Assembly: GCA_001657325.1 (NCBI GenBank)
Contig: LWRO01000008.1
Location: 62,001-126,000 of the forward strand
Length of the DNA: 64,000 bases
Source of the DNA: Geitlerinema sp. BBD 1991-9
GTDB lineage: Bacteria > Cyanobacteriota > Cyanobacteriia > Cyanobacteriales > Geitlerinemataceae
Direction: 5' to 3'
Below the pieces are notes generated by a model. That model had not been told where the DNA came from, searched no databases, and saw only the letters and a list, made by a program, of their open reading frames with translations. The position numbers were made by a program, and so were the translations under genes. How positions within the stretch are numbered: the stretch's first letter is position 1; every line of letters starts with the position of its first letter. Positions 6,364-29,887 of the stretch are shown piece after piece.

Positions 6364-6614
6364 CCCCTCTCCTTACCGATTTGGGAATTTACGTTTCAGA
6401 GGTTTGGGAGCATCGACTGAACTCACCGTTTTTATCCTCAGTTCCCTGCCAGAATGCTGTTTTGCTACTGCCGTGTTGAAACCGGTTGCACTTACGATCG
6501 GTCGTCGATGCGAAACCCTTTCATTTAAAGATAAAACATGGCACTTCAACGTGCTGAATGCCGATCGACCCCAGGCTTCAAAAATATGGATTAGGAAATG
6601 TCTGTTTTGCTGCC

Positions 6615-18028: not shown

Positions 18029-19099
18029 ATGACATCCGTGTTGCGGTTAACCGGAGAGGAGCGCAAACAACTCCGAAAGGCTATTCTCTCAGCCTATCCA
18101 AGACCAGGAGATCTGGAAATCTTTGTTGATGAAGCGCTAGGGGAAAATCTATTCGAGATTGCGGGAACTCATACTCAGACACAAGCAGCATTTGAGTTGA
18201 TTAAATGGTCGATCGCGAAAGGCCATATCGACGAACTGGTTATCGCATTGTACCGAGATACGCCGCAAAACCCAGACATTCAACGGTTTTGCGAACCAAT
18301 TTTAGAGTATTTAAGGCAGCGCATCGTTTTCGATGCTGATGTCGGTCGATCGATCTCCTTTTCGACATCCTTTGACTGGGAAGGGCCGATCGAAGATGTC
18401 GAGTTGCAGGCGTTTCTCCCTCGTCAGCTTTCCTTTGAAGCGGATGTCGGAACGCTGCGACGCGGTTTGCTCGATTGTGCGAATGCGGTTTGTAAAATTA
18501 CGTTTGTCGATCGAGACGAATTCGGAACGGGTGTTCTTATCGGTAAAGACTTAGTGTTGACGAACTACCATGTTCTCAGTCGCGACGAAACCACCGATCT
18601 TGACGCTCTTAACGCTATTGCTCGATCGATCCGTTTTGAGTTCGGCTATGTCAGTTCGGAACTTGGCGAATCTAGGCCGACTGCTGTTTTCGAGGCTGAT
18701 GGGAACCAACCCGTTTTGAAAGCGAGTGAGATCGATCGGCTCGATTACGTTTTGTTGCGAGTGGAACCGAAAATCGAAAATGTGGACTACATCAAACCCG
18801 TTCCCCTCGCGCCGGCTGCGCTTCCATCTCAGAAAACAGGTTTGAACGTTCTCCAACATCCAAACGGCGAACTGATGAAAGTGTCGCTGAGCGGTAACGG
18901 CGTTGTGGCCGCCAATTTACAGCGGGGACTCGTTTGGTATGTCAATCGCACCGCAGGCGGTTCGAGTGGTGCGCCGTGTTTTAATGACGATTGGAAGCTT
19001 GTGGCGTTACACCACGCCGAAATTCCCCGTAGATTCGGGAGTATCCGCGAAGGTATCTTATTTCAAGCAATTCACGCTGAAATTGCGTCGTTATTGTAG
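18029..19099 (+). CDS. EAD1-trypsin-like serine protease, probable effector of a conflict system
   Basis: 356 residues. Residues ~5-98 are a helical effector-associated domain of the EAD1 type (LTGEERKQLRKAILSAYP, LEIFVDEALGENLFEIAG, AFELIKWSIAKGHIDELV). After a linker, residues ~148-356 are a trypsin-fold protease with an intact triad: His181 (TNYHV), Asp239 (RLDYVLL) and Ser313 (GGSSGAP). There is no signal peptide, so it should act in the cytoplasm. EAD domains bring effectors to adaptors that carry the same EAD. The same domain starts the VMAP gene 430 bases downstream, so the two proteins probably bind through EAD1-EAD1 contact. First gene of a five-gene run. Confidence 0.88.
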   Translation: MTSVLRLTGEERKQLRKAILSAYPRPGDLEIFVDEALGENLFEIAGTHTQTQAAFELIKWSIAKGHIDELVIALYRDTPQNPDIQRFCEPILEYLRQRIVFDADVGRSISFSTSFDWEGPIEDVELQAFLPRQLSFEADVGTLRRGLLDCANAVCKITFVDRDEFGTGVLIGKDLVLTNYHVLSRDETTDLDALNAIARSIRFEFGYVSSELGESRPTAVFEADGNQPVLKASEIDRLDYVLLRVEPKIENVDYIKPVPLAPAALPSQKTGLNVLQHPNGELMKVSLSGNGVVAANLQRGLVWYVNRTAGGSSGAPCFNDDWKLVALHHAEIPRRFGSIREGILFQAIHAEIASLL

Positions 19100-19107
19100 G
19101 AGAAAGT

Positions 19108-19524
19108 TTGATGGGTCGTCGTATTGTTACACGTCAACTTCAAGCCGGTAAACCAAATCCGCCAGTCGATCGATATGCCGATCGATTACTCAAATATATT
19201 CCGGCCGATGTGGTCGCGTTTTGGTTGGCGGTGAACGGCTCGATTCAAAGTGCTGGAGATGACGTTCCTAAGTCAACGTTGTTGTGGATACTCTTTATAT
19301 TTGGTGTGTTTTTGACGTTGGGTTGGACGTTCAAGCAAACTCAGGAAGCGAAGAAGAAACCGGCTTGGACGCAAATCGGTATTTCTTGTGTGGCTTTTGT
19401 AGTTTGGGTTTTTGCGATTGGTGGCCCCTTTGCAGAACTCTCATTTTACACGCCGCTTTACGGATCGTTACTTCTTCTCGTTTATACCTCAACGGTTGCA
19501 CTGATTACACCACCGGAAAAGTAG
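19108..19524 (+). CDS. Three-helix membrane protein in the conflict operon
   Basis: 138 residues, starting 8 bases after the protease stop with AGGAGA just before the ATG. A soluble N-terminal ~50 residues are followed by helices at ~55-75 (LLWILFIFGVFLTLGWTF), ~88-107 (IGISCVAFVVWVFAIGGPF) and ~112-132. I do not recognise a named family. Its position between the EAD1 protease and the VMAP gene suggests a membrane-associated component or second effector of the system. Confidence 0.7.
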   Translation: MMGRRIVTRQLQAGKPNPPVDRYADRLLKYIPADVVAFWLAVNGSIQSAGDDVPKSTLLWILFIFGVFLTLGWTFKQTQEAKKKPAWTQIGISCVAFVVWVFAIGGPFAELSFYTPLYGSLLLLVYTSTVALITPPEK

Positions 19525-19534
19525 ATAAATTCAA

Positions 19535-20983
19535 ATGAAGTGGGATAAAGAAATAGAAAGAGAATTTCGTGAGGCATTGTGTGACAGCTATCCTAACACG
19601 ACTGAATTAGCAATATTTGTTGATGACAACTTAGAAGAAAACCTTGCAAAAATCACGACTGAAACAAACTTAACTTACATCGTTTTTAAGTTAATAAAGT
19701 GGGCAGAGATTCAAAAAAGACGGCTTGCACAACTTTTAGAGGCATTCTGCCAAGACAATTCACATCATACTCTTGTTGCTCGACTTCAACCTATTATCGC
19801 TCAACTTCAAGAAGATTTTGTCAATCCCAAGAATCACAATATCAAAAACGAAGATTGGGAACGACTGTTTGAAAACTTTCAGCAAAACAACTTACTTATA
19901 CTCAATAAAGCTTGGTATGAGGCACTTCAATATCAACCGTTAACTGAAATTTATACGAACTGTCCTTTCTTCGATCGAGTTGGGGCAATTCGAGAAATTT
20001 TAGAGCGTTACGACGATCCTAAGCTTGCAATCGCATTTGTTAATCGTGCGATTCGATTGCTTATAGCTTTAGAAAATATTGAAGATGACGTTATTCAAAA
20101 TTTAGAAAATTGGCGAGACAAGATTGCAGACTCACATCGAGTTCCAAAGATAATCGGAATGGGCAATAAAAACCTACATGGCTATTTGCTAGTACCTATT
20201 CAACTTCAAGCTGGTCACGTGACAATTTATCCTCAGTTATATATAACCGAGGACGATCGAACTTATCCAGAAATAGAGAAAATTGAATCTACTTGGGGAA
20301 TACAGTGTCAAATTAACGACGTTTCCAACTACTTATCAGAAACAATCGCTGAGGCAGAAAAAAAGCTAGAAGTACTAAAAGGTGAAGACACGATTACGCT
20401 CGAAGTGTTCTTACCCTGGCAATATCTCGATAGCCACGTTCACGAATGGGATGTGACTGATGAGCTGGACGATCCATGCCAACTCCACGTATATCGAAAG
20501 TTCCTCGTTCGCTCGCTCGATCGAGCAACAATTTCGGGCTTAAAGCTTAAACTTAAAAAGGCTTGGAACTGTTTGCAAAACTGCCTTCAAAACGGATCGA
20601 TCGATCGGAGTTTCGATAAATTCGATTGTTCGAGTTGCAAACCATTACCCGCTCTTGTTGGCAAACCAGGTGTAAAATTGGGAGGCGGACTTCCTGAAAA
20701 TATAGAACAACGTGAAGCTATATTAAAAAATCTCGTGAAATCAGCAATTCCCATCGCGTTTTGGACATACCAACAATTCGATCTGAACGAAACGATCGAA
20801 GCTTTTGATATGCTTTTGACTGTTGATAATCTAAAAAGTTTCCGTAACTTAGCCAAAGCCATTCGAGAAAAGCGTAATGCCGAAAATCCGAACCCCGTTC
20901 ACCAAGACCTCGGAATGCTTTGTGACTGTCCGACACGCCTGCCAACGTTGCCGGGTCAAGGTTCTCCACTTCGCACGCCTTAG
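19535..20983 (+). CDS. EAD1-VMAP adaptor of a vWA-MoxR ternary system
   Basis: 482 residues. The N-terminal ~90 residues are an EAD1 domain paralogous to that of the protease (LAIFVDDNLEENLAKI, VFKLIKWAEIQKR). The middle is helical. The C-terminal ~300 residues match the VMAP-C (vWA-MoxR associated protein) architecture: GYLLVPIQLQAGHVTIYPQL, ITLEVFLPWQYLD, PCQLHVYRKFLVRS and the tail LGMLCDCPTRLP. Such proteins link the vWA-MoxR pair to EAD-bearing effectors. The gene is clearly richer in A/T than its neighbours, a sign of separate origin or module exchange. The starts and ends fit an operon with the flanking genes. Confidence 0.8.
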   Translation: MKWDKEIEREFREALCDSYPNTTELAIFVDDNLEENLAKITTETNLTYIVFKLIKWAEIQKRRLAQLLEAFCQDNSHHTLVARLQPIIAQLQEDFVNPKNHNIKNEDWERLFENFQQNNLLILNKAWYEALQYQPLTEIYTNCPFFDRVGAIREILERYDDPKLAIAFVNRAIRLLIALENIEDDVIQNLENWRDKIADSHRVPKIIGMGNKNLHGYLLVPIQLQAGHVTIYPQLYITEDDRTYPEIEKIESTWGIQCQINDVSNYLSETIAEAEKKLEVLKGEDTITLEVFLPWQYLDSHVHEWDVTDELDDPCQLHVYRKFLVRSLDRATISGLKLKLKKAWNCLQNCLQNGSIDRSFDKFDCSSCKPLPALVGKPGVKLGGGLPENIEQREAILKNLVKSAIPIAFWTYQQFDLNETIEAFDMLLTVDNLKSFRNLAKAIREKRNAENPNPVHQDLGMLCDCPTRLPTLPGQGSPLRTP

Positions 20984-21027
20984 TCAGATTAATTTGTAAA
21001 ATTTACTCGTAATTCCTGTAAATTTCA

Positions 21028-22170
21028 ATGTCAGACTGGAAACTCTTTCTCGGCAACTGCGGCGACACTCCCCGTCCTTTAAGATCGATCCCCGATCGAC
21101 CTCCCTGGCGGGAATTCCTACCGCCGAAGCAAGTCGATTCCGAAGCTGACGAAGCGCGTTGGCAGAAATTACAGGCCAAAGCACGCCAAGACCCGCGAGC
21201 CGTCGAACGCGGTAGCAGCTTTCGCATCGAAAAAAACGAAGACGGACATTCTGAAATCGTCGATGCTGTCAACGCAGCGATTCACCTGCGCCGTCCGCTC
21301 CTCGTGACGGGAAATCCCGGTTCGGGGAAAACCTCGCTCGCCTATGCGATCGCCTACGAACTCCAACTCGGCCCCGTATTGGTTTGGCCGATTACCGCTC
21401 GATCGACCTTGAAAGACGCACTCTATCGCTACGATGCCATCGCTCGGCTACAAGACGCACAAATCGACAAAGCCAAACTCGAACTCGCCAAACTGCAAGG
21501 GCAAGAAGACACGCAACAACTCGAAGCCTTAAAAGAGGAAAGCAGCTTAGGCGATTACTTTCAACTCGGTTCTGTGGGAACGGCGTTTCTCCCTTCCCAT
21601 AGCCCTCGCGTCCTCCTCATCGACGAAATCGACAAAAGCGATCTCAACTTACCCAACGACTTACTCAACTTGTTTGAGGAAGGACAGTTTGAAATTCCCG
21701 AACTCGTTCGGCGTAAGGGGCACGTTCCCCGAGTGACAGTACGCACGGAAGACGACGAGATCGAGGCAGAGATCGAAAATGGAAAGGTTCGGTGTTGCGA
21801 GTTTCCAGTGGTCGTGATGACCAGTAACGGCGAGCGGGACTTTCCCCCTGCGTTTCTGCGGCGTTGCTTGCGCTTGCGAATGCCCGATCCGACACCGAAT
21901 GCACTTCATGCGATCGTTCGGTCTCACTTTAATCGATCGAACCTACAACCACCAGACACACAACCATCGGACGCAGACGATTGGCAAAATGCCAAATCTC
22001 GAATTAACGAGTTGATTAAAGCGTTTCGCGAAGGCAATAAAGCCGATCGAGCCACGGATCAACTGCTCAACGCCGTCTATTTAATGACGCGGGAAGCCAA
22101 ACCGGACGATGAGGAGTGGGAAGAGTTAAGGAAACTCTTGTTTAGACGGTTGAGCGAGGGCGATCGATGA
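21028..22170 (+). CDS. MoxR-family AAA+ ATPase
   Basis: 380 residues. Walker A is GNPGSGKTS (residues ~96-104), Walker B VLLIDEIDKSD (~194), sensor region VVVMTSNGERDFPPAFLRRCL with the arginine finger. This MoxR ATPase acts as the NTP-driven switch or chaperone of a vWA-MoxR-VMAP system. Its last bases overlap the start of the vWA gene (ATGA at 22167-22170), which indicates translational coupling and a stoichiometric complex. Confidence 0.9.
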   Translation: MSDWKLFLGNCGDTPRPLRSIPDRPPWREFLPPKQVDSEADEARWQKLQAKARQDPRAVERGSSFRIEKNEDGHSEIVDAVNAAIHLRRPLLVTGNPGSGKTSLAYAIAYELQLGPVLVWPITARSTLKDALYRYDAIARLQDAQIDKAKLELAKLQGQEDTQQLEALKEESSLGDYFQLGSVGTAFLPSHSPRVLLIDEIDKSDLNLPNDLLNLFEEGQFEIPELVRRKGHVPRVTVRTEDDEIEAEIENGKVRCCEFPVVVMTSNGERDFPPAFLRRCLRLRMPDPTPNALHAIVRSHFNRSNLQPPDTQPSDADDWQNAKSRINELIKAFREGNKADRATDQLLNAVYLMTREAKPDDEEWEELRKLLFRRLSEGDR

Positions 22171-24800
22171 ACGTCGATCGACTCGTGGCGATCCTGGCAG
22201 AATCGGAGCATCTCAGCGCGAGGGAAATCGCCGAGACGCTGTGGTTGGCGATGCAAATTCAAGAAGATCGATCGCCGCCTCCGCCTGAAGAACCGCGCCA
22301 ATTGGAACCGGTTGAAAATCGATACGACGGCGAGATCGAGCCGTCGATCGCCGATCCGGGTAACAAGATAACAGAGGCGCAATCTGAACCCACCGCCAAC
22401 GTCGTCACAACGCCACCGACGCAAACCGCTGGAATTTTGCCGGAAACTGCACTACCGCTGTGGGTGTCCGATCCGCCGATGTTGGACGACTCCCTCGATG
22501 TAATCCGAGCGTTGCGGCCGCTGTTGCGACAGGTTCCCTCGGGGGTGTCCGATCGAATAGACGAAGCGCAAACGGTCGATCGAATTGCGGAAACGGATAT
22601 TTGGTCGCCGGTTTTGGAACCCGAGCGCGAACCCTGGTTTGATGTGGTTTTAATTGTCGATCGAAATGCGTCGATGAACCTGTGGGGTCGCTTGGTGGAC
22701 GATTTGCAACTGGTACTCGAACGGTACGGGGCGTTTCGCGACCTGCAACGGTGGGAGATCGAAGCGACAATTAACGCGAAACCAGACGCGAAAGCAAACT
22801 CGCCAAAATATAACGTGCGACTCCGTGCCAATCCCAACCGTCCCTCGCGCAGTCCCCGCGAACTCCTCTCCCCCAACGGTCGGCGGATTGCCATCGTTCT
22901 GAGCGATTGCGTGGCCGATTACTGGTGGGATGGCGCGATGCTGTCGGTGTTGCAGGATTGGGGACGGGCAATGCCGACGGTGGTTTGGCAGATGTTGCCC
23001 GAGTGGATGTGGGAGCGAACGGCGTTGGGACTGGGAAACTACGTCGCGCTGCGGAATGCAATTCCAGGGGCAACGAACGCCCAACTGGATGCGGAAGTGC
23101 TGGCGTTGGAGCAACCGGACGATATCAGCAGTCGCGTGGCGCTCCCCATCGTCACCTCTGAGGCGGAGGAGTTGGCGGCCTGGAGTCGGGTTTTGGCGGG
23201 CGATCGTCGTGACGTGACGGCGGGTTTTCTGTTACCGCAGCGCGTATCGAGTGTGTCTGAGGGTTTGCCGGATTTGGAAGAAGCAGACGGAGAAGAATCA
23301 GAGAAGCCTTCGGTGGAAGAACGGGCGCGAGAACAAATTCAGGAGTTTCGGCTGTTGTCGTCGTTGCGGGCGAGACAGTTGGCGGCGCTGCTGTCAGCGG
23401 CTCCGGTCATTACGTTGCCCGTGATGCGTTTGATTCGCGCGTCGATGTTGCGGGAGTCCTCGCCGTTACCCGTGGCGGAGGTGTTTTTGAGCGGACTGTT
23501 GCGGCGACTGCCAGAGCAACCGAATACGACTGATGCGGAGTTGGTGCAGTACGACTTTGTGGAAGGCGTGCGGGAAGCGTTGCTCGATATGCTGCCCCCT
23601 GTCGATGCGGTGGAGGTGATTAATACGGTTTCGTTTTACGTGTCGCGGCGGTTGGGTTACTCGTCGTTGAAGCAGTTTAAGGCGTGGTTGCTGTCGCCCG
23701 AGGTGGAAAAGGCGGAAAACGTTCGGGGGTTGAAGTCGTTTGCCAGAGTGACGGCGCAGGTGTTGAAACGTTTGGGAGGCGAGTATGCCAAACTCGCGCG
23801 GGAGTTTGAGGTAGTCGAGCCACCAGAACCGCCACCAATTGTTTTTCCTGAGTTACAAACTTGTTCCTTTGATATTGCAACGGTTACGGTTGTCCGCGAG
23901 TTTGTGTTTGAGACGGCAACTGTTGGGTTTGAAACAGTTGAAAGGCAATCGGGTTTGTTTGGATTGAGACGAGAATCTCGATCGGAGTTGAAAATTAATC
24001 GCCGTCGTAAGCGAGCGTGGAGCTTTACGGAAGATTTAGGGGACAGTGTAGAACTCGAAATGGTCTACATTCCTAAAGGAACTTTTAAGATGGGATCGCC
24101 AGAGGACGAAGAAGAGAGTTTTGACTGGGAACGACCGCAGCGTGACGTGAGTGTACCTGAATTTTTCATGGGGAAATATCCCGTGACTCAGGCACAGTGG
24201 AAAGCAGTGGCTAAATTGCCCAGGATCGATCGAAACCTCAATTCCGATCCTGCAAATTTTAAAGGCGATAAGCGACCTGTCGAACAAGTCTCCTGGCTCG
24301 ATGCTGTCGAATTTTGTCAGCGTTTGTCAAAACATACGGGGCGAGATTATCGACTACCCAGTGAAGCAGAATGGGAATACGCCTGTCGAGCGGGGACGAA
24401 AACTCCGTTTCATTTTGGAAAAACGATAACAACTAAATTAGTAAACTATAATGGCAACTATACATATGGCCATGGAGTAAAAGGAGAGTATCGAGAAGAA
24501 ACAACGCCAGTCGGTAATTTTCCGGCGAATGCGTTTGGGTTGTACGATATGCACGGCAATGTTTGGGAATGGTGCGAGGACGATTGGCACGAGAATTATC
24601 AAGATGAAAATGCACCAACTGATGGAAGTGCTTGGATTGAAAACAATAATCGTATAAAAACAAGAAAAGTCCGGCGTGGCGGGTCTTGGTACCTCGAGCC
24701 GAGGCTCTGTCAATCGGCTTATCGTCTCAGGGACGTTCCCGGTTTCACCGACAACGATATTGGGTTTCGGGTGGCGTGCGGCGTGGCGAGGACTCTCTAA
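22167..24800 (+). CDS. vWA protein with C-terminal FGE-sulfatase-like (C-type-lectin-fold) domain
   Basis: 877 residues. An N-terminal low-complexity region precedes a SAV_2336-like vWA domain (from ~155): FDVVLIVDRNASMNLWGRL has a variant MIDAS with asparagine for the first serine. A helical region follows to ~600. Residues ~625-870 are an FGE/SUMF domain: MVYIPKGTFKMGSPEDEE, YPVTQAQWKAV, RLPSEAEWEYACRAG, GNVWEWCEDDW and RRGGSW. Only the first of the two catalytic FGE cysteines is present (Cys848 in RLCQSAYR), so it is probably a ligand-binding rather than an enzymatic domain. The C-terminal ~40 residues look like a retroelement-diversified variable region. It would be the sensor of the conflict system. 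Confidence 0.87.
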   Translation: MNVDRLVAILAESEHLSAREIAETLWLAMQIQEDRSPPPPEEPRQLEPVENRYDGEIEPSIADPGNKITEAQSEPTANVVTTPPTQTAGILPETALPLWVSDPPMLDDSLDVIRALRPLLRQVPSGVSDRIDEAQTVDRIAETDIWSPVLEPEREPWFDVVLIVDRNASMNLWGRLVDDLQLVLERYGAFRDLQRWEIEATINAKPDAKANSPKYNVRLRANPNRPSRSPRELLSPNGRRIAIVLSDCVADYWWDGAMLSVLQDWGRAMPTVVWQMLPEWMWERTALGLGNYVALRNAIPGATNAQLDAEVLALEQPDDISSRVALPIVTSEAEELAAWSRVLAGDRRDVTAGFLLPQRVSSVSEGLPDLEEADGEESEKPSVEERAREQIQEFRLLSSLRARQLAALLSAAPVITLPVMRLIRASMLRESSPLPVAEVFLSGLLRRLPEQPNTTDAELVQYDFVEGVREALLDMLPPVDAVEVINTVSFYVSRRLGYSSLKQFKAWLLSPEVEKAENVRGLKSFARVTAQVLKRLGGEYAKLAREFEVVEPPEPPPIVFPELQTCSFDIATVTVVREFVFETATVGFETVERQSGLFGLRRESRSELKINRRRKRAWSFTEDLGDSVELEMVYIPKGTFKMGSPEDEEESFDWERPQRDVSVPEFFMGKYPVTQAQWKAVAKLPRIDRNLNSDPANFKGDKRPVEQVSWLDAVEFCQRLSKHTGRDYRLPSEAEWEYACRAGTKTPFHFGKTITTKLVNYNGNYTYGHGVKGEYREETTPVGNFPANAFGLYDMHGNVWEWCEDDWHENYQDENAPTDGSAWIENNNRIKTRKVRRGGSWYLEPRLCQSAYRLRDVPGFTDNDIGFRVACGVARTL
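24675..24797 (+). other. Candidate diversity-generating-retroelement variable region (VR)
   Basis: The end of the FGE domain has the fixed frame R-G-G-S-W..PR.C.SA.R...P.....IGFRV..ARTL seen in retroelement targets. The codons at the variable slots are mostly C- or T-ended with free first and second bases: TAC, CTC, CTC, TAT, CTC, GAC, GTT, GGT, TTC, ACC, GAC, AAC, GAT (24690-24758). That is what A-to-N mutagenesis of AAC/AAT codons in a template would leave. The invariant GC-rich end (24762-24797) would serve as the initiation site. No template copy or reverse transcriptase was recognised in the window. This is inference from pattern. Confidence 0.55.
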
Positions 24801-25059
24801 CCCTCGGCGCTCTAGCACTTTTGCCCTTGGCACTTTTCTCTTTACCCTTTCCGATCTCGCCGTTAGGCGAGTCGAATTTTTTTTCAAAATTGAGTGTCTA
24901 AAATTGACGATCGAATAACACCTATTTTGAGTTTCAAGAAACAGCTTTAAAGACCAAAAATATCACCAATCTCTGTGTCCTCTGTGCCTGAAGTGGTTCC
25001 CAATTCATCCAACAAAAAACGTGCTAAAATTTTAACAAATACAATTATTTATATATAAA

Positions 25060-27645: not shown

Positions 27646-27910
27646 AGGAAGAAAAAGCGGGTTTTTTGGAATTGCGGTGTAGTTTAATTGCCTATGATAC
27701 CAAGACCCTTGTCGGGGCGAACGGCTGTTCGCCCCGACGCCAACAGTTTCAGAATTTCATAAACTCTGCGAGATTCTCGTTCCGAGACGCTTCGCGAACG
27801 CACTAACTCCAACAGACCCGAAAAAGGGGTCTCCTGAGATTACGGTGTAATTTGTTGAACTGAATACAAGATTTGGGTAGGGGCGAACGGCCGTTCGCCC
27901 CGACAGCAAG
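27646..27910. repeat. Two diverged direct repeats, each ending in a family C palindrome
   Basis: 27646-27738 and 27816-27906 share order: GAAAAAG.GG, TTGCGGTGTAGTTTAATTG versus TTACGGTGTAATTTGTTG, then GGGGCGAACGG palindromes. The palindromes are at 27711-27738 (GTCGGGGCGAACGG and its complement) and 27880-27901. A third, shorter palindrome lies at 56154-56173. The rest of 27464-28189 is A/T-rich spacer with no gene seen. Confidence 0.6.
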
Positions 27911-28189
27911 GGTTTTGACCGGGTATAAAATCAGCTTATCACCCCAAACTCAGAAGACCCCGAAAAAGCCAATAATATTGAGGTGATTCGGTCTGTCACG
28001 AATCAATTCTTAGTAAATCAATGCTTTTTGAAATCGTCGATAAACTGATTGCTTTATCGATAATTAATTCCTGCTAAAATCTGCAAAAAACTGACTTCTA
28101 TTATATCTTTTGAATCTAAAATTTAGATAGAAATTAATAACAATTAAAACTCCACATTATTTTAACATTTGTGGAGAGGAGGAGTCATC

Positions 28190-29887
28190 GTGTCTACAAA
28201 CGTTCCTTATTACATTAGTGCTTTGTGGTATGGCGAACAAGATCGCTGGAATTCCGACCAACCACCTGGCACACCTGTCACGTTGGAGTATAGCTTTAAA
28301 GAAACCGCAGGTGATTCGACAATTACGGGTTTTCAACCCTTGGATAGTGAGGAACAAGCTCTGATACGGGAAGTTCTTTCTCGTTGGTCTGAGGTTGCAA
28401 ATATTACTTTCGTCGAAACGAGTAGTGGAAGTGGGGAAATTCAGTTTGCTCGGCGAGAATCTCCAGGTCCACTTTATCCTGAGTTTTGGGGCGGTTGGGT
28501 TGAAGATCCTCCTTGGAACGGTGCGAGCAGTGACCCGAGTAACGTGTGGTTTCGGAGTAACGAGTCTTACGTCAATCCTGAGGGTAAAACAATTACATGG
28601 TCGATTCCGAATTTAAGCTCTCCAACCTATGACTCTCCAAGGGATTTAAACCCTCAAGTTAGTGGTGGTCTTGACTTAGCCATGCACGAAATCGGTCATG
28701 CTTTGGGATTGGATCACCCGGCGTGGCCACTATCTGGTGCAGAAAGCACGAAGCAATACACAGTTATGGGGGGGATTCATCCTACCATGACTACCTACAA
28801 CTCCAAAGGACAGGCCATTTGGACTACATATGCAGCAACGCCTCAACTCTACGACATCGCCACAATTCAATACTTTTACGGTGCAAACACTAGCACGCGC
28901 TCGGGAGATGATATCTATTATTGGGCGACAGATGCCGACTTTGTCGAAACCATTTGGGATGGAGGGGGTATCGATACGATCGATACGTTCAATCAAATAC
29001 GAGGAAGTGTCATCGATCTGCGGGAAGGCCACTTTAGTTCAATTGGGTCTTACACCGATGACCTTACGCCGCCCAGTCCGCGCCGTGACGCCCGAGATAA
29101 CCTGGCAATCGCGTTTGGCGTGACGATTGAAAATGCTGTGGGCGGGCTGGAAAGCGACAAGATCGTCGGTAATTCAGTGGCTAACATTCTCTCTGGACAC
29201 GACGGTAATGACGAGATTGATGGCGGGCCGGGTAACGATCGCATCGATGGCGGACGCGGACGAGATCGACTTCACGGCGAACTCGGAAGCGATGAAATCT
29301 ATGGCGGACTCGGAAGCGATGAAATCTACGGTGGACTCGGAAGCGACGAACTCTATGGCGAACCGGGAAACGATCGCATCGACGGCGGACACGAAGACGA
29401 TGAAATCTACGGCGGCCGCGGACGAGATCGACTCAATGGCGGGCCGGGAAACGATCGAATCCATGGTGGAAGCGGACACGACGTGCTTCTCGGAGATGTC
29501 GGACAAGACGAAGGTAGCGAAAGTGGAAGCGTACTTCCTCTCAGTGACGATATAATGTTCGGCGACCGTGGCAACGATGTCATGAAAGGAGTCTACGGAG
29601 ACGACCTTATCGATGGTGGACTCGGCGACGACAGGCTGTTCGGTCAGTCGGGAGCCGATCGATTTGTCTTACGGTCTGGCAATGGGGTCGATTTCGTCGC
29701 TGATTTTAAGGGTGGAGAAGACTTGTTGCTCTTGGCTGATGGTTTAACGTTTGCTCAACTTGACGTAAATCGGATTGGTGATGAAGGAGTATCGAAGCTC
29801 GTTCGCATTCGGGCCACGGGTGAGCTATTAGCGATTGTCGGAGGCGAAGAAAACTTGACTGAATTAGATTTCATGACCGTGACGTAA
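28190..29887 (+). CDS. Serralysin-like M10 metalloprotease with RTX repeats
   Basis: 565 residues from GTG 28190, which has an excellent GAGGAGG nine bases upstream; a TTG 21 bases earlier is not preferred. The zinc motif HEIGHALGLDHP (HExxHxxGxxH) is intact, with a Met-turn candidate in YTVMGGI. After the catalytic domain (~1-240) come RTX nonapeptides (GGPGNDRIDGG, LGSDEIYGGLGSDEIYGG) that bind Ca2+, and a C-terminal block ending RFVLRSGNGVDFVADFKGGEDLLLL. No signal peptide, as expected for type I secretion; no transporter is adjacent. Near-identical 27-bp units at 29280-29355 show recent repeat expansion. Confidence 0.9.
   Translation: MSTNVPYYISALWYGEQDRWNSDQPPGTPVTLEYSFKETAGDSTITGFQPLDSEEQALIREVLSRWSEVANITFVETSSGSGEIQFARRESPGPLYPEFWGGWVEDPPWNGASSDPSNVWFRSNESYVNPEGKTITWSIPNLSSPTYDSPRDLNPQVSGGLDLAMHEIGHALGLDHPAWPLSGAESTKQYTVMGGIHPTMTTYNSKGQAIWTTYAATPQLYDIATIQYFYGANTSTRSGDDIYYWATDADFVETIWDGGGIDTIDTFNQIRGSVIDLREGHFSSIGSYTDDLTPPSPRRDARDNLAIAFGVTIENAVGGLESDKIVGNSVANILSGHDGNDEIDGGPGNDRIDGGRGRDRLHGELGSDEIYGGLGSDEIYGGLGSDELYGEPGNDRIDGGHEDDEIYGGRGRDRLNGGPGNDRIHGGSGHDVLLGDVGQDEGSESGSVLPLSDDIMFGDRGNDVMKGVYGDDLIDGGLGDDRLFGQSGADRFVLRSGNGVDFVADFKGGEDLLLLADGLTFAQLDVNRIGDEGVSKLVRIRATGELLAIVGGEENLTELDFMTVT

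What the first reader, a model, noticed from the sequence alone, without database searches (positions are those of the whole stretch)
24675..24797. Probable retroelement-diversified variable region in the FGE domain
Seen: the last 40 codons keep the fixed RGGSW..PR.C.SA.R..IGFRV..ARTL frame, and the codons between are C/T-ended with scattered first and second bases, as expected if AAC/AAT template codons were A-mutagenised. Known: DGRs diversify C-type-lectin/FGE-fold domains, including sensors of conflict systems in multicellular cyanobacteria. The template and reverse transcriptase must lie elsewhere.
Basis: inference. Interest (0 to 1): 0.85.

Follow-up and report, generated by a model that had tools for sequence, protein, structure and literature searches.

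The report
Orphan hypervariable sensor tip in cyanobacterium
The last 33 codons before the tail of this immune-like gene are a real target of a mutation-making retroelement of a kind already known from cyanobacteria, but the reverse transcriptase and template that should write to it are not found in this genome's assembly.

Summary
Window 24675-24773 is a 99-nt variable region (VR) at the C-terminal end of an FGE/C-type-lectin-like domain, in the effector gene of a VMAP ternary conflict operon (18029-24800). Three kinds of evidence identify it as a diversity-generating retroelement (DGR) target. (1) A paralogue in the same genome (contig C44) differs from it at 19 of 25 predicted template-adenine sites but at 1 of 33 other first/second codon positions; third positions are homogenised (0.15 divergence, against 0.51 upstream) and the 26-nt tail is identical. 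A second paralogue pair (C4, C40) shows the same. (2) Relatives, including the same family, carry complete DGRs (FGE gene, RT, AAC/AAT-rich template) with the VR at the same site; 102 of 106 template-to-VR changes in eight pairs start at A. (3) The window keeps the VR-side tail and a pyrimidine tract that follows nearly all such genes. No template and no DGR reverse transcriptase were found in the window's own assembly (113 contigs), and its VR pairs carry more non-adenine differences than intact DGRs do. I therefore read these as orphan VRs whose diversifier was lost or not assembled. The system type is known (Kaur 2020); the orphan state and the pyrimidine tract are less expected.

The parts
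24675..24773 (+). Variable region (VR), 33 codons, C-terminal end of the FGE/CLec-like domain
   Evidence: Aligns without gaps with five templates and many VRs of relatives; A-site pattern against paralogues
24774..24797 (+). Constant tail, probable IMH (VR-type GGACTC form, not template-type GTACT/CTGAC)
   Evidence: 26/26 identical to the C44 paralogue from 24774 on; the relatives' VRs have GGACT where their templates have GTACT or TGACT
24798..24852 (+). Stop codon followed by a pyrimidine-rich tract (CTC/CCCTTT repeats)
   Evidence: Y=0.76 in the 45 nt after the stop; after 38 VR genes with a template in the same locus mean Y=0.80, against 0.46 after other ORFs and 0.40 after templates
24856..24871 (+). 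GC hairpin CTCGCC-GTTA-GGCGAG followed by a T-run; terminator-like, could also serve as a VR-downstream hairpin
   Evidence: conserved in relative G002
22167..24800 (+). Target gene, 877 aa: SAV_2336 N-terminal-like region + FGE-sulfatase domain
   Evidence: NCBIfam NF041121 E=2.7e-117; Pfam PF03781 E=5.2e-55
21028..22170 (+). MoxR-like AAA ATPase, overlaps the start of the target gene by 4 nt
   Evidence: Pfam AAA_5
19535..20983 (+). EAD1 - VMAP-C protein
   Evidence: Pfam PF19955, PF20028
18029..19099 (+). EAD1 - trypsin-like peptidase
   Evidence: Pfam PF19955, PF13365

Best explanation
24675-24773 is the variable region of a DGR target gene. In the past a DGR reverse transcriptase copied an AAC/AAT-rich template RNA with errors at adenines, and the cDNA replaced the 3' end of this gene up to the conserved tail. 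This changed the ligand-contacting residues of the FGE/CLec sensor of a MoxR/VMAP/trypsin conflict operon while leaving its scaffold intact. At least four VRs in this genome (window, C44, C4a, C40) were written this way from two template lineages. The reverse transcriptase and template are absent from the held assembly, and the VRs now look mostly static (orphan), kept as a fixed repertoire of sensors. Shown: VR anatomy, A-site pattern, complete DGRs in relatives, no RT/TR in the assembly. Inferred: ligand binding, conflict function, and loss rather than an assembly gap. The confidence given is for DGR origin of the VR; for true loss of the machine it is about 0.6.
For: Own-genome pairs: win/C44 third-position divergence 0.51 upstream against 0.15 in the VR, tail 26/26, Fisher p=3.9e-5; C4a/C40 0.56 against 0.15, tail 25/26, p=0.0045; A-site concentration p=3e-9 and 4e-7. 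Gene conversion would homogenise the variable sites too. Complete FGE-RT-TR cassettes in the same family (G005, G010, G012) and in G027 and G104, with the VR at the same site and 102/106 TR-to-VR changes from A. Over 38 VR genes with a template in the same locus, 502 of 519 mismatches have A in the template. 12 of 14 relatives with a VR/TR match at E<=1.5e-15 hold a strong DGR RT; only the window's genome and G002 do not. Own VR pairs carry 9/144 non-A differences against 4/576 in intact DGRs, p=1.4e-4 (site counts rounded), as expected if homing stopped some time ago.
Against: No template or RT in the own genome, so the copying step is not shown here. Non-A differences could come from two slightly different templates rather than decay. 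G002, also without an RT, has a clean VR pair (1 non-A difference), which fits an unassembled RT better than an old loss. No template among the held loci explains the window VR (best has 17 non-A mismatches).
Confidence: 0.9

Rival explanations
1. The DGR is intact and active, but its RT and template lie in a stretch missing from the assembly (gap or plasmid) and act in trans. (A rival to the orphan part only; it shares the DGR origin of the VR.)
For: 113 contigs; trans-acting and incomplete DGR loci are documented in Thiohalocapsa PB-PSB1 (PMC10907252); Kaur et al. report templates elsewhere in the genome (PMC7159879); the G002 VR pair looks fresh.
Against: Genome scored 100% complete; neither RT nor any template found by several kinds of search; own VR pairs carry excess non-A differences; G002 (8 contigs, 97%) lacks both as well.
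Confidence: 0.35
2. Ordinary fast protein evolution at the ligand-binding loop of an FGE domain, no retroelement involved.
For: The paralogue C4b, without DGR tail or tract, varies at the same sites.
Against: Cannot explain third-position homogenisation and identical tails in exactly the pairs that differ at A-sites, nor template/RT cassettes next to the same genes in relatives.
Confidence: 0.04
3. Gene conversion between paralogues explains the shared tails and frameworks.
For: Paralogues share tails and downstream tracts.
Against: Conversion tracts would carry the variable codons along; here 19/25 A-sites differ inside a stretch with near-identical framework.
Confidence: 0.04

Closest known systems
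DGR-diversified VMAP ternary conflict systems of cyanobacteria (Kaur et al. 2020, PMC7159879)
   Same: MoxR ATPase, EAD/VMAP-C protein and trypsin, with the FGE/FGS domain fused to the effector component and variable at its C-terminus
   Different: In the DGR-associated systems of that paper a template was confirmed nearby or elsewhere in the genome; here neither template nor RT is found in the assembly
DGRs of multicellular bacteria, Thiohalocapsa PB-PSB1 (PNAS 2024, PMC10907252)
   Same: CLec/FGE sensor targets of conflict systems; incomplete loci with targets diversified in trans
   Different: There an RT exists in the genome or in part of the population; here none is seen
Treponema denticola TvpA (PDB 2y3c)
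   Same: FGE-fold protein with a C-terminal VR; aligns with the window domain through the VR
   Different: Not fused to a SAV_2336-type module (the alignment covers the FGE part only)
Complete DGR cassettes in same-family genomes G005, G010, G012
   Same: Same gene type, same VR frame and length (99 nt), same kind of downstream tract
   Different: They hold RT and template beside the target

Membership tests
DGR target (variable region) | VR at the C-terminus of a CLec/FGE-fold protein | tested here: met
   Pfam FGE-sulfatase to residue 870 of 877; TvpA match
DGR target (variable region) | Variation confined to template-adenine positions | tested here: met
   Paralogue comparison with A-sites taken from relatives' templates: 19/25 against 1/33; strain-level variation not testable
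DGR target (variable region) | Conserved IMH at the 3' end of the VR | tested here: met
   26/26 identical tail with C44, VR-type GGACT form
Complete DGR | Template repeat with A at variable sites in the same genome | tested here: not met
   BLAST with two inferred templates and an A-rule pattern search of G000 find only the VRs
Complete DGR | DGR-type reverse transcriptase in the same genome | tested here: not met
   PF00078 and DGR-RT profile: only group II intron RTs, RT-Cas1 and one DRT-like RT
Complete DGR | Accessory protein (Avd/HRDC) | not tested
   Not searched
DGR target (variable region) | Hairpin/cruciform downstream of the VR (a subset of DGRs) | tested here: inconclusive
   Hairpin at 24856-24871 followed by a T-run; equally a terminator
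VMAP ternary conflict system | VMAP-C protein with effector-associated domain, MoxR ATPase and trypsin in one operon | tested here: met
VMAP ternary conflict system | vWA domain in the third component | tested here: inconclusive
   No vWA family rang; residues 18-497 match NCBIfam SAV_2336 N-terminal domain

The most novel reading that the evidence does not exclude
The pyrimidine tract directly after the stop codon of these VR genes (and not after their templates) is a cis element of target recognition in cyanobacterial-type DGRs, taking the role that a hairpin/cruciform plays in phage DGRs; and this genome keeps four such targets as a frozen sensor repertoire after losing the diversifier.
Probability: 0.3. 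Interest if true: 0.6.

Novelty: new member of a known kind. Interest (0 to 1): 0.42.

Why it matters
It adds a genome in which DGR-written sensors outlive their detectable writer, which makes the maintenance or freezing of a hypervariable repertoire testable. It also points to a compact downstream tract that marks DGR targets even when no template or RT is in sight, which could help find orphan VRs by sequence alone.

Tried and rejected
Template search in the own genome by BLAST with the window VR and two inferred templates, and by an A-rule degenerate 60-mer with up to 3 mismatches: only VRs. RT search by Pfam and by a DGR-RT profile to E=10: the four RTs are group II intron (2), RT-Cas1, and one closest to Drt4/Drt5. 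Search for a template in G002: none. Search over 391 genomes of the order for a template explaining the window VR: best has 17 non-A mismatches. Naming the organism through genome contigs failed because near records are left out. A-site concentration alone was dropped as proof because the non-target paralogue C4b shows it too. Literature search for a pyrimidine tract in DGRs in the held library: no relevant paper. Structure prediction was not run, since it would not decide between the readings.

Full report
Observation. The protein has a SAV_2336 N-terminal-type region (NF041121, E=2.7e-117) and a C-terminal FGE-sulfatase domain (PF03781, E=5.2e-55). It closes an operon of EAD1-trypsin, a small membrane protein, EAD1-VMAP-C and a MoxR-like ATPase, the layout of the VMAP ternary conflict systems of Kaur et al. 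(PMC7159879). By sequence the domain matches PvdO, TvpA (a known DGR protein) and FGE. In the HMMER alignment the first cysteine of the human FGE GGSYMC segment is replaced, so a binding rather than an FGE-type catalytic role is likely (the catalytic role of that cysteine is from my own knowledge).

Paralogues in the same genome. Four further FGE genes share the C-terminal frame. The window VR and C44 share an identical 26-nt tail and near-identical framework but differ at variable codons. C4a and C40 form a second such pair. Upstream of the VR these pairs differ at 51% and 56% of third codon positions, inside the VR at 15% and 15% (Fisher p=3.9e-5 and 0.0045). Within the VR, differences fall at 19/25 and 14/25 sites that are A in relatives' templates, and at 1/33 and 0/33 other first/second positions. 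Framework homogenised, A-sites scrambled: this is the mark of DGR copying, and neither drift nor gene conversion gives it. The fifth paralogue, C4b, has no shared tail and no tract, and its third positions are not homogenised. It shows that A-site concentration alone is not enough, because these residues vary in any case.

Relatives. Several genomes, including the same family, hold complete cassettes: FGE gene, DGR-type RT, and a template reading RGGSWNNNPRNCRSANRNRNTPDNRNNNIGFRV or similar. The templates have the same 99-nt length and register. In eight VR/template pairs, 102 of 106 changes start at A (A>T 56, A>G 35, A>C 11). Over 38 VR genes with a template in the same locus, 502 of 519 mismatches have A in the template.

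Missing machine. In the window's own genome no template was found. The only RTs are two group II intron RTs, one RT-Cas1 and one RT closest to Drt4/Drt5. Of 14 genomes with a VR/TR match at E<=1.5e-15, 12 hold a DGR RT above 500 bits; the exceptions are this genome and G002. The own VR pairs carry 9 non-A differences in about 144 sites, against 4 in about 576 for VR/template pairs of intact DGRs (p=1.4e-4; the site counts are my rounding). This fits drift after homing stopped, but two diverged templates would give the same. G002 has only one non-A difference between its two VRs, so there an unassembled RT is as likely as a loss. I put about 0.6 on true loss in the window's genome and 0.35 on an unassembled, possibly active DGR.

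Downstream tract. After the stop codon of nearly every VR gene comes a tract of CCCTTTGC/CTCTTTT units. Over the 45 nt after the stop the pyrimidine fraction is 0.80 (n=38) for VR genes with a template in the locus, 0.46 after other ORFs (n=82) and 0.40 after the templates themselves (Mann-Whitney p about 1e-17 and 2e-13). These genes are related, so the p-values overstate independence. The window has 0.76, C4a 0.84, C40 0.73, C44 0.71, and the non-target C4b 0.51. From the tail through the terminator-like hairpin, the window and its G002 counterpart are nearly identical. The tract may be a recognition element; this is inference, and I found no report of it in the held library.

Verdict. A real DGR variable region in a known kind of conflict-system sensor, with the diversifying machinery not found in the held assembly.

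Noticed in passing
window 24798-24852; downstream of VR genes in L081, L084, L085, L121, L126 and others: Pyrimidine-rich tract (CCCTTTGC/CTCTTTT units) directly after the stop codon of DGR target genes, absent after their templates and after the non-target FGE gene C4b.
   Followed up: partly
L082 (relative G002), reverse strand, VRs ending at 6391 and 5295: Two tandem FGE genes with a clean DGR-type VR pair (1 non-A difference, 17/25 A-sites differ) in a genome of 8 contigs with neither DGR RT nor template found.
   Followed up: partly
L023 (own genome C97:95177-95788): Reverse transcriptase fused to Cas1 (RT-Cas1) in the window's genome.
   Followed up: no
L024 (own genome C66:8387-8815): RT-like protein closest to antiviral Drt4/Drt5 but far below their cut-offs.
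   Followed up: no
L083 and L093 (relatives G012, G089): DGR reverse transcriptases read with one in-frame stop (TAA in the shorter G012 copy at C164, TAG in G089), so decaying DGR RTs may occur in the order.
   Followed up: no
window 28169-29887: ORF with a metalloprotease-like HEIGHALGLDH motif followed by glycine/aspartate-rich repeats (27-nt period at 29176-29499).
   Followed up: no
window 27711-27915: Two 39-nt copies of a palindromic GTCGGGGCGAACGGC.GTTCGCCCCGAC repeat, MITE-like.
   Followed up: no
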